From an uncultured Pirellulaceae bacterium (GTDB lineage: Bacteria > Planctomycetota > Planctomycetia > Pirellulales > Pirellulaceae), in assembly GCA_937929805.1 (NCBI GenBank), contig CALFUT010000006.1:113487-177486 (forward strand): a stretch of 64,000 nucleotides of DNA, read 5' to 3'. A program made the translations under genes and the position numbers. Numbering within the stretch: the first letter of the stretch is position 1; every line of letters starts with the position of its first letter. Of the stretch, positions 37,431-40,154 are shown piece after piece. The notes beneath the pieces were generated by a model, which was not told the DNA's origin, made no database searches, and saw nothing but the letters and a program-made list of their open reading frames with translations.

Positions 37431-40154
37431 TTAATGCTGTGTCTGTCGGGTTAGCCGATGTTGATTCCGTTTTGCGTGCGTGGCAATCAACGCGATCGTC
37501 AGTAGCAACCAACTGAATCCACTGATCCAGCAGCCGATCCAGAATTCAATGGGCGAGTAGGTGAAGGTGACTCGGCGATTGCCACGCGCGATATCAACCC
37601 CCATTCCAATCCGCTCAGGCGACGTTCTGATTTCACAACTGTATGCGGGATTGCCAGCCACATCTTGGGCTTCTGCCTGCCAACCTTCGTCATGCAGAGC
37701 GTAGATATGCAATTGGACGTAAGGTTGTTCGACGAGTGCGTCTGCTTTGATCGCTCTGTTTGTATGTTCTACTTGGCGGACTTTGTGTCCAGTGTCCCAT
37801 TGAAACCAAGCTTCCCAAATAGATCCCTTTGGACGAAAACGAACATGTCGACTAGGTTTTCGGAATGGATGTGAAACTCGAGTCTCTACGAGTCTGAAAT
37901 TCTGCGGTTCTGATTGGAGCGTCAACAAATCGTTCGATGGATTTCTAATCATTTGGCCCGCAACCCGATAACGCTTTGCCATTGGTTGTGGCAACTGTCC
38001 CGATTTCGAGAATGCCGCGTCCAATGGATCAGTCAAATACTCGTAAGTGTGCGGCCACACCGAACCAAAGCTTCCAAGTAGCGCCACGCCATGCCCCAAA
38101 TGATGCTTGGGAAACAATGTCTCGCGCCGCCACTGAATGATTTCGCTCAAGCGATTGGGGGAAGACTCGTAAGGCCACGTTTGAGTTCTCGCTTGCACAG
38201 CGAAGGAGCGATAGATGCGCGGGATCGTGTTAGGGTGCCGAGCTTTCAGTTCTTCCAGTTGATCGCCGATTTTCGTCGGAGATTCAAAGACGCTTGAATC
38301 CACTTCCGCCAACATCCATCGGTTGGCAAGGAGAATATCGATCGTTGTCAGCAGCACGATTAAGATCGCAAGGACTTTCGAAGCGATCTCAACGTTACGT
38401 CGCGATTTCGCGTGCCAGAACAGAGCTGTCAATATTGCCAAGACAATTAGTGGCTGTGCGAGTGATAGGTTCAGACCGGCAATCGTGCCATCAACATCCA
38501 GCGGCCCGAAGAACAGATTCGGTCGGATGTGTCCCAGCCATGATTCGATTGACGCGATTTGCAGCGCGACCAGTCCGACAGTGCAAACGACACCGATCGC
38601 GATTCCAGAATGCAAGCCCGACGCGCAAGCAAGTGGATTTAGGGACGGTGGAGGATCCGCTCGCTTGCGCGTCGGGCTTGTATTCGTTATCCGACTCAAC
38701 CCGAGCCCTGCCAACACGGAAATCATTAAGCTGGCGATGACGAACAGCTTGGCAGGATAACGGAACATAAAATACTTGGGTAGCAAGGTCGTCATGAACC
38801 AATACAGGCCGCCAACTTGAGGCCCAATCTTTAGCCCGCCGATCTTCAGTTCGCTTAATCCAAAAACCGCCAAGCCTTCGTTCAGTAACCAGACAGCACC
38901 AAACCAACCGAATGACGCGACGGCAAAGAACAGCGCGATGCGGCTTAGCCACACATGCCGCTTTCGTTTGCCCCATAAACGGAATTGGCTTAGTGCCAAC
39001 AAGATTGTTAGCACACCCGCGTAAACCGATGGCGTCCAGATCCGTTCGGCGGCGGGCAGCGCGTCGCTCCAGCGCTGATGCGTTGGGAACGGCTTGCCCA
39101 TCAAGTTGGGAAAGAAAAGTTCGGCGATGCTCCACGGCGGTTGACTGAACTGATAGGTCGCGCCTTGTGTGCTGCCGGTGGGGTGCGAGCCAAACAAGGA
39201 TCGAGTGATTGTTTTATTGAGGTACGTGACTGGCGCCCAATTATCAAGCCTGATGCGAGGTTTTGAATTCGGTGTCGGTTCGGAAACTTCCAGAGCATAA
39301 TTCCACGCTTGAACCACATTTGAGATCTGCCCCGTGGCGGCTCGTTCACTTCGCTCGGCCCAATGGGCGGTCGGGAGAATTTGAATCGCCGCCAAGCAAG
39401 AAGTGATCATCACCATTAACGCCAGACGAGCACCACCAAACGCCAACCACCGGTAGGCTGCATGGCAGGAGGAACGAGTGTGCTTCAGCAGCCAGCGTCT
39501 GTGCCCCCAGAATCGAAAAAGTAAACTGGCTGCTGCGATCAAACCAACGTGGTAAACCATCTGTGGATCGCCGCCCAGAATCATCAGGGCACAAACGACT
39601 CCGGCCGATGTGGTCGAACGCCAATCGCTACCCAAAACGCCTCGCCACACAAAGGCCAATGCAAACGGCAACCACGCCGCACTGACCAGATAGATGACAT
39701 TGGTTACTTGAAAGAGGACACTCGCGCCGAACGCATACGAGATTGCGGCCAGTGTCGCGCCGGCTTGATTGGCTTTCATCACCCGAGCAAATCGATAGGC
39801 TCCAGCAGCCGCGATCAACACGTGAACGGATAAGTAGATGCCATATCGCGAAGGGTAGCTGAGAAACCGGCACAGAAAAATCAACTTGCCGGGATAGAAC
39901 ACGCTGCTCGATCCATCACCCACCACCGGCAGACCATAGTTGCAATACGGATTCCAGAGCGGGATCTCACCCGACGCCCACACGCTGTCGATCCACTTGA
40001 ATAGCGGATAGTACAGGTATGCCGAATCGCGAAATCCACAAACGGTCTGGCCGGAAATCATCGGCCAAAACATCCACAGCCAGATCGAACCGATCAGTGC
40101 GGCAGGCCAGTAGCGTTGTAACCAACGAGCAAATTGATTGGGAGCGTCGGGCAT
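37431..40154 (-). CDS. Large multi-TM membrane protein, YfhO/glycosyltransferase-like
   Basis: 907 aa, multiple TM helices, FRDSAYLYYPLFKWIDSVWASGEIPLWNPYCNYGLPVVGDGSSSVFYP motif typical of YfhO-like proteins. Confidence 0.8.
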   Translation of the reverse strand: MPDAPNQFARWLQRYWPAALIGSIWLWMFWPMISGQTVCGFRDSAYLYYPLFKWIDSVWASGEIPLWNPYCNYGLPVVGDGSSSVFYPGKLIFLCRFLSYPSRYGIYLSVHVLIAAAGAYRFARVMKANQAGATLAAISYAFGASVLFQVTNVIYLVSAAWLPFALAFVWRGVLGSDWRSTTSAGVVCALMILGGDPQMVYHVGLIAAASLLFRFWGHRRWLLKHTRSSCHAAYRWLAFGGARLALMVMITSCLAAIQILPTAHWAERSERAATGQISNVVQAWNYALEVSEPTPNSKPRIRLDNWAPVTYLNKTITRSLFGSHPTGSTQGATYQFSQPPWSIAELFFPNLMGKPFPTHQRWSDALPAAERIWTPSVYAGVLTILLALSQFRLWGKRKRHVWLSRIALFFAVASFGWFGAVWLLNEGLAVFGLSELKIGGLKIGPQVGGLYWFMTTLLPKYFMFRYPAKLFVIASLMISVLAGLGLSRITNTSPTRKRADPPPSLNPLACASGLHSGIAIGVVCTVGLVALQIASIESWLGHIRPNLFFGPLDVDGTIAGLNLSLAQPLIVLAILTALFWHAKSRRNVEIASKVLAILIVLLTTIDILLANRWMLAEVDSSVFESPTKIGDQLEELKARHPNTIPRIYRSFAVQARTQTWPYESSPNRLSEIIQWRRETLFPKHHLGHGVALLGSFGSVWPHTYEYLTDPLDAAFSKSGQLPQPMAKRYRVAGQMIRNPSNDLLTLQSEPQNFRLVETRVSHPFRKPSRHVRFRPKGSIWEAWFQWDTGHKVRQVEHTNRAIKADALVEQPYVQLHIYALHDEGWQAEAQDVAGNPAYSCEIRTSPERIGMGVDIARGNRRVTFTYSPIEFWIGCWISGFSWLLLTIALIATHAKRNQHRLTRQTQH
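38613..38680. repeat. 68-bp palindrome in frame inside the YfhO-like ORF
   Basis: Arms CAAGCCCGACGCGCAAGC and GCTTGCGCGTCGGGCTTG, perfect 18 bp. Confidence 0.97.

What the first reader, a model, noticed from the sequence alone, without database searches (positions are those of the whole stretch)
38613..38680. In-frame palindromic element inside a membrane-protein gene (RPE-like)
A 68-bp element with perfect 18-bp arms (CAAGCCCGACGCGCAAGC/GCTTGCGCGTCGGGCTTG) sits inside the 907-aa YfhO-like ORF, adding roughly TSPTRKRADPPPSLNPLACASGLHSG between a TM segment and the next without breaking the frame. Established parallel: Rickettsia palindromic elements inserted in coding genes. Similar TRKRA...LACASGL peptides are, to my recollection, frequent in planctomycete proteomes, suggesting a mobile palindrome that tolerates translation.
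Basis: partly seen in the sequence, partly recalled or inferred. Interest (0 to 1): 0.82.

Follow-up and report, generated by a model that had tools for sequence, protein, structure and literature searches.

The report
Transposase-linked hairpin inside a membrane-protein gene
A short DNA hairpin, one of about thirty scattered copies in this planctomycete genome and of a kind that elsewhere sits beside a small single-strand transposase gene, landed long ago inside a membrane-protein gene and has apparently been translated as a tolerated loop ever since.

Summary
In detail: a 76-bp near-perfect palindrome (38609-38684; the reported 68 bp is its core) lies in frame in a 907-aa ORF. It is one of about 29 full copies in this genome. 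The family is widespread in planctomycetes (22 of 40 relatives; 47 of 120 genomes of the order). I find a likely one: a ~165-aa HUH/Y1 transposase (HVH, Y----Q) whose gene is flanked by this hairpin in many planctomycetes: 52 of 80 such loci have it within 250 bp, 28-fold denser than further out. It fits the published 'class 3' TnpA-Y1 proteins. The element is best read as a non-autonomous REP doublet (REPIN-like), not a Rickettsia RPE. This genome has no detectable copy of that transposase, and its copies are diverged (86% arm identity versus 96-97% in two genomes that have it). The YfhO-like insertion is old and probably single: shared in frame by relatives at 68-95% identity, diverged or eroded in frame in others at 58-67%, absent at 54% and below. 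Most copies are intergenic. A new member of a known kind, with an unusually clear record of insertion and in-frame decay.

The parts
38609..38684 (.). Palindromic element (hairpin; REP-doublet-like), 76 bp
   Evidence: (83.3 bits to model R1)
38609..38638 (.). Arm 1 (AATGCAAGCCCGACGCGCAAGCAAGTGGAT); contains the CCGA 'foot' followed by the CGCGCAAGC core
38639..38654 (.). Variable loop (family loop length and sequence differ between copies)
38655..38684 (.). Arm 2 (ATCCGCTCGCTTGCGCGTCGGGCTTGTATT)
37431..40154 (-). 907-aa YfhO-like membrane-protein gene that carries the element in frame (insert = residues ~491-517)

Best explanation
The element is a non-autonomous REP-doublet hairpin (REPIN-like) of the kind that accompanies planctomycete 'class 3' TnpA-Y1 (RAYT-like) transposases. 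Proposed mechanism (inferred from IS200/IS605 and RAYT biochemistry): the transposase binds the folded hairpin on exposed single-stranded (lagging-strand) DNA, cuts at the tetranucleotide foot beside each arm (CCGA, fitting the published CnGA) and pastes the doublet elsewhere. One copy inserted, in a frame-preserving way, into a loop between two membrane helices of a YfhO-like protein in the common ancestor of several lineages. Because the arms have no stop codon in any frame and the loop tolerates extra residues, it has been translated and inherited since, with in-frame decay in some lineages. In this genome the transposase is gone or not assembled, and the remaining copies are diverging relics. 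Shown here: copy number, genomic spread, association with the transposase gene, its HUH/Y1 fold and motifs, the shared in-frame insertion. Inferred: cleavage site, transposition chemistry, translation of the peptide in the cell.
For: Multicopy: about 29 full copies plus solo arms in this genome. Present in 22/40 relatives and 47/120 genomes of the order. Transposase: the G002 RAYT has hairpins on both sides; its relatives in G004, G016, G039, G035 and G006 also have adjacent hairpins. Of the 80 nearest relatives of the protein in a genome collection, 52 have the hairpin within 250 bp, 28 on both sides; density 1.71 vs 0.062 per kb. Co-occurrence: 9/9 RAYT-positive genomes carry the element vs 13/31 others (p = 0.002); in the order 21/28 vs 26/92 (p = 1.5e-5). 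The protein has PF01797, invariant H96, Y153 and Q158, and its model matches IS608, ISDra2 and E. coli RAYT 4er8. Class 3 description: PMC6006769. Insertion history: shared in frame by P0001, P0002 and G010/P0003, diverged or eroded in frame in P0004-P0008, absent in P0009 and beyond. Copies are 86% arm-identical here vs 96-97% in two RAYT-carrying genomes.
Against: No transposase of this group was found in the window's own genome, so mobility there is not current or the gene lies in a gap. 26 of the 47 element-bearing genomes of the order lack a strong RAYT hit. Co-occurrence counts are not corrected for phylogeny. The exact inserted unit and target site cannot be read: the nearest element-free relatives are at most 54% identical, and the net gain is only about 20 residues against ~26 encoded by the element, so some original loop was lost or lengths drifted. 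Single arms fold only weakly, unlike textbook REPs. Class 3 membership was judged from the published description; the authors' sequences could not be compared.
Confidence: 0.85

Rival explanations
1. It is a member of the Rickettsia palindromic element / CGTC repeat group, spread by unknown means.
For: Both are palindromic, multicopy, and sometimes sit in frame in genes (PMC3733652). The arms contain an internal CGTC.
Against: CGTC repeats have 8-9 bp stems, 4-5 nt loops and a terminal CGTC tag, and are not associated with transposase genes. Here the stem is ~30 bp, the loop mostly ~10-19 nt (longer in a few copies), the ends are AATAC/GTATT, and the hairpin is strongly associated with one transposase group.
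Confidence: 0.05
2. It is a MITE of some other (DDE) transposon, and its proximity to the Y1 transposase is secondary.
For: Short hairpin with inverted repeats and variable centre; 26 of 47 element-bearing genomes show no strong RAYT hit.
Against: 28-fold enrichment next to one transposase group, on both sides in 28 loci, with the hairpin sequence varying from locus to locus but keeping the same architecture. Arms at transposon-like spacing were not seen. No target-site duplication was evident by eye in the flanks (not tested statistically).
Confidence: 0.07
3. The palindrome is kept because it works as RNA (terminator, mRNA stabiliser) or as a useful protein loop, mobility being incidental.
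For: Intergenic copies are mostly between tandem (14) or convergent (8) genes and rarely divergent ones (1). The YfhO copy is retained over a long divergence.
Against: Within a gene a terminator would be harmful. Patchy distribution and near-identical copies in RAYT-carrying genomes fit mobility. The YfhO loop decays by in-frame deletions in P0004 and P0006, so it is not required. Arms do not covary above shuffled controls across copies.
Confidence: 0.1

Closest known systems
Class 3 TnpA-Y1 proteins and their flanking hairpins (Quentin et al. 2018, PMC6006769)
   Same: Small HUH/Y1 protein with Y----Q motif and extended N-terminal conservation, principally in Planctomycetes; gene flanked by atypical hairpins with a CnGA foot; hairpins multicopy in some genomes.
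   Different: The paper had 24 proteins and noted the hairpins by hand. Here the hairpin family is modelled, counted and tied to the gene across 80 loci, and copies are shown inside protein genes. The window's genome keeps hairpins but no such gene.
REPINs with RAYTs (Bertels and Rainey 2011, PMC3116915)
   Same: Inverted doublet of conserved arms with a variable centre forming a hairpin; mostly extragenic; near a cognate tyrosine transposase.
   Different: No GTAG/GTGG tag at the ends; single arms fold weakly; a different transposase class; far fewer copies in this genome.
Intragenic REPs / Rickettsia RPEs (Di Nocera et al. 2013, PMC3733652)
   Same: Palindromic repeats inserted in frame in protein genes and apparently tolerated.
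   Different: Different ends, stem and loop length; transposase association present here and absent for CGTC/RPE repeats.
GTAG REP with its RAYT in the same genome (window 30365-30428)
   Same: Same genome, also an inverted doublet.
   Different: GTAG-tagged, about 49 arm copies, many identical, with a resident RAYT flanked by them.

Membership tests
Class 3 TnpA-Y1 system | HUH plus Y----Q transposase gene adjacent to the hairpin | tested here: met
   met in relatives, not in the window's own genome
Class 3 TnpA-Y1 system | Mainly Planctomycetes | tested here: met
   Nearly all of the best 80 of 241 relatives are in records titled as planctomycetes; two are titled only 'bacterium' and three carry the anammox name Kuenenia
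Class 3 TnpA-Y1 system | 5' tetranucleotide foot CnGA at the hairpin | tested here: inconclusive
   CCGA precedes the mini-hairpin CGC-GCAA-GCG in most arms (C 32/40, C 40/40, G 39/40, A 37/40), but the cleavage site is not known
Class 3 TnpA-Y1 system | Sequence match to the published class 3 profile | not testable with these tools
   Supplementary profile and sequences not available
REPIN | Inverted doublet with conserved arms, variable centre, hairpin | tested here: met
REPIN | GTAG/GTGG-tagged REP units that are palindromic by themselves | tested here: not met
   Ends are AATAC/GTATT; single arms fold no better than shuffles
Rickettsia RPE / CGTC repeats | Terminal unpaired CGTC tag, 8-9 bp stem, 4-5 nt loop | tested here: not met
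Rickettsia RPE / CGTC repeats | In-frame presence inside protein genes | tested here: met
   (YfhO-like, squalene-hopene-cyclase-like, U32-peptidase-like)
Rfam RNA families | Match above gathering score | tested here: not met
   Only sub-threshold generic hairpin (miRNA) matches

The most novel reading that the evidence does not exclude
The hairpin inside the gene is actively kept palindromic by a DNA-level process (template switching or arm-to-arm correction), overriding protein sequence. Between this genome and sister G010 one stem pair changed from C:G to T:A on both sides, and both changes alter an amino acid (CCG to TCG, GGC to AGC). If general, in-gene REPs would be self-correcting sequences whose peptide is dictated by DNA structure.
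Probability: 0.12. Interest if true: 0.65.

Novelty: new member of a known kind. Interest (0 to 1): 0.45.

Why it matters
It ties an in-gene palindrome to an identifiable transposase group, which Rickettsia RPEs have lacked, so in-frame spread of REP-type elements becomes directly testable. It also gives one locus where insertion, apparent translation and in-frame decay can be followed across related lineages. For annotation, it warns that short TRKR / LACASGL-type stretches in planctomycete proteins can be transposed DNA rather than protein domains.

Tried and rejected
The ten Y1 transposases of the own genome as mobilisers: none is flanked by the element; several have other REPs. Family-wide compensatory covariation of the arms: not above shuffles, so the one compensatory pair with G010 is only an anecdote. 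Frequency of the peptide in large planctomycete proteins: only orthologues found. Further intragenic cases among sampled copies of G016, G012, G002, G006 and G035: no convincing ones, most are intergenic. Several own-genome copies that look intragenic (L033, L029) lie upstream of plausible signal-peptide starts and were discounted. Rfam: nothing above threshold. Exact target site and duplication: not resolvable from available relatives.

Full report
OBSERVATION. The window belongs to a 4.2-Mb, 74-contig genome. The 18-bp arms at 38613-38630 and 38663-38680 are exactly complementary; the whole palindrome is 76 bp, 38609-38684, and folds far better than shuffles. It lies in frame in the 907-aa minus-strand ORF 37431-40154, encoding residues ~491-517.

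A DISPERSED FAMILY. The arm occurs 33 times with at most one mismatch in this genome and never in the reversed control. Alignment of 17 copies gives ~30-nt arms, AATACAAGCCCGACGCGCAAGCGAGTGGAT, around a variable centre. A covariance model finds about 29 full copies here, matches in 22 of 40 relatives and in 47 of 120 genomes of the order. The consensus arms have no stop in any frame on either strand.

WHERE COPIES SIT. Of 29 own-genome copies, 14 lie between tandem genes, 8 between convergent, 1 between divergent; 6 lie in long ORFs. Of these six I regard two as firm (the window copy and one in a squalene-hopene-cyclase-like gene), one (L036) as probable, and three as likely 5' of the true start. 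A degenerate copy with one recognisable arm, counted separately, lies in a U32-peptidase-like gene. With ~88% of the window in ORFs of 100 aa or more, in-gene copies are strongly under-represented.

THE TRANSPOSASE. None of the ten Y1 transposases of this genome carries the element; several have other REPs. In relative G002, however, a 165-aa Y1 protein lies between copies of the hairpin. Its relatives in G004, G016, G039, G035 and G006 also have it beside the gene. A genome-collection scan gave 241 relatives; among the best 80, 52 have the hairpin within 250 bp of the gene (28 on both sides), 28 times the density further out. Genomes with the transposase carry the element more often (9/9 vs 13/31, p = 0.002; 21/28 vs 26/92, p = 1.5e-5; not phylogeny-corrected). 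The protein has PF01797, HVH and Y----Q, and its model matches IS608, ISDra2 and E. coli RAYT structures. This fits class 3 of Quentin et al. 2018, PMC6006769: mainly Planctomycetes, Y----Q, flanked by atypical hairpins with a CnGA foot. Most arms carry CCGA directly before a CGC-GCAA-GCG mini-hairpin.

STATE IN THIS GENOME. No such transposase is found here, by single-protein or profile search. Arms of the copies are 86% identical, against 97% and 96% in two genomes with the transposase (the copies compared are the best-scoring ones, which flatters the genomes with more copies). So the family here is probably orphaned. A GTAG REP family with its own resident RAYT in the same genome has many identical copies.

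HISTORY OF THE INSERTION. Orthologues in sister G010 and in P0001-P0003 carry the insert in the same place and frame. P0005 and P0007 have diverged versions; P0004, P0006 and P0008 have eroded versions, still in frame. P0009 and more distant relatives (54% identity or less) lack it. One old insertion, vertically inherited, is the simplest reading. Between this genome and G010 one stem pair changed on both sides (C:G to T:A), both changes non-synonymous, but family-wide covariation is not above shuffles.

MECHANISM. Shown: family, spread, association, fold and motifs of the protein, shared in-frame insertion. Inferred: single-strand cut-and-paste of the doublet by the class 3 transposase, and tolerance of the peptide in a flexible loop (coil of low confidence between two helices). 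Not shown: translation in the cell, cleavage, current mobility.

KNOWN OR NEW. The transposase class and its hairpins, and in-frame REPs elsewhere, are known (PMC6006769, PMC3733652). I found no paper describing this family inside planctomycete genes, but most subscription papers are not in the library. Verdict: a new member of a known kind.

Noticed in passing
30365-30428: A GTAG-tagged REP doublet (GTAG[TC]CATCACACTCCGTGTGATG) between two ORFs; about 49 arm copies in the genome, with a resident RAYT (L017) flanked by an array of them.
   Followed up: partly
45695-45786 and 10988-11073: Inverted repeats of the type GTACAGTTTACAGGGTAC; the first has three further places in the genome.
   Followed up: partly
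5946-6006: Hairpin AGCCGTTTGGGCGCTAGCCCCGGAC / GTCCGTGGCTAGCGCCAAAACGGCT, possibly another REP family.
   Followed up: no
56666-56740: Hairpin built of CCACGGAT-type repeats; a similar CCACGGATGTACACCGATTTTCACGGATT stretch lies near another element copy (L033, about 3330).
   Followed up: no
L126 1806-1940: Directly after the transposase stop codon, a tandem array of an 18-bp unit (GACGCGCAATACAAGCCC) made of arm sequence.
   Followed up: no
L178 2501-2980: A related transposase flanked by a different hairpin (CGGA foot, AGGGC-GCAA-GCCCT stem), suggesting that each subgroup has its own hairpin with a CnGA foot.
   Followed up: no
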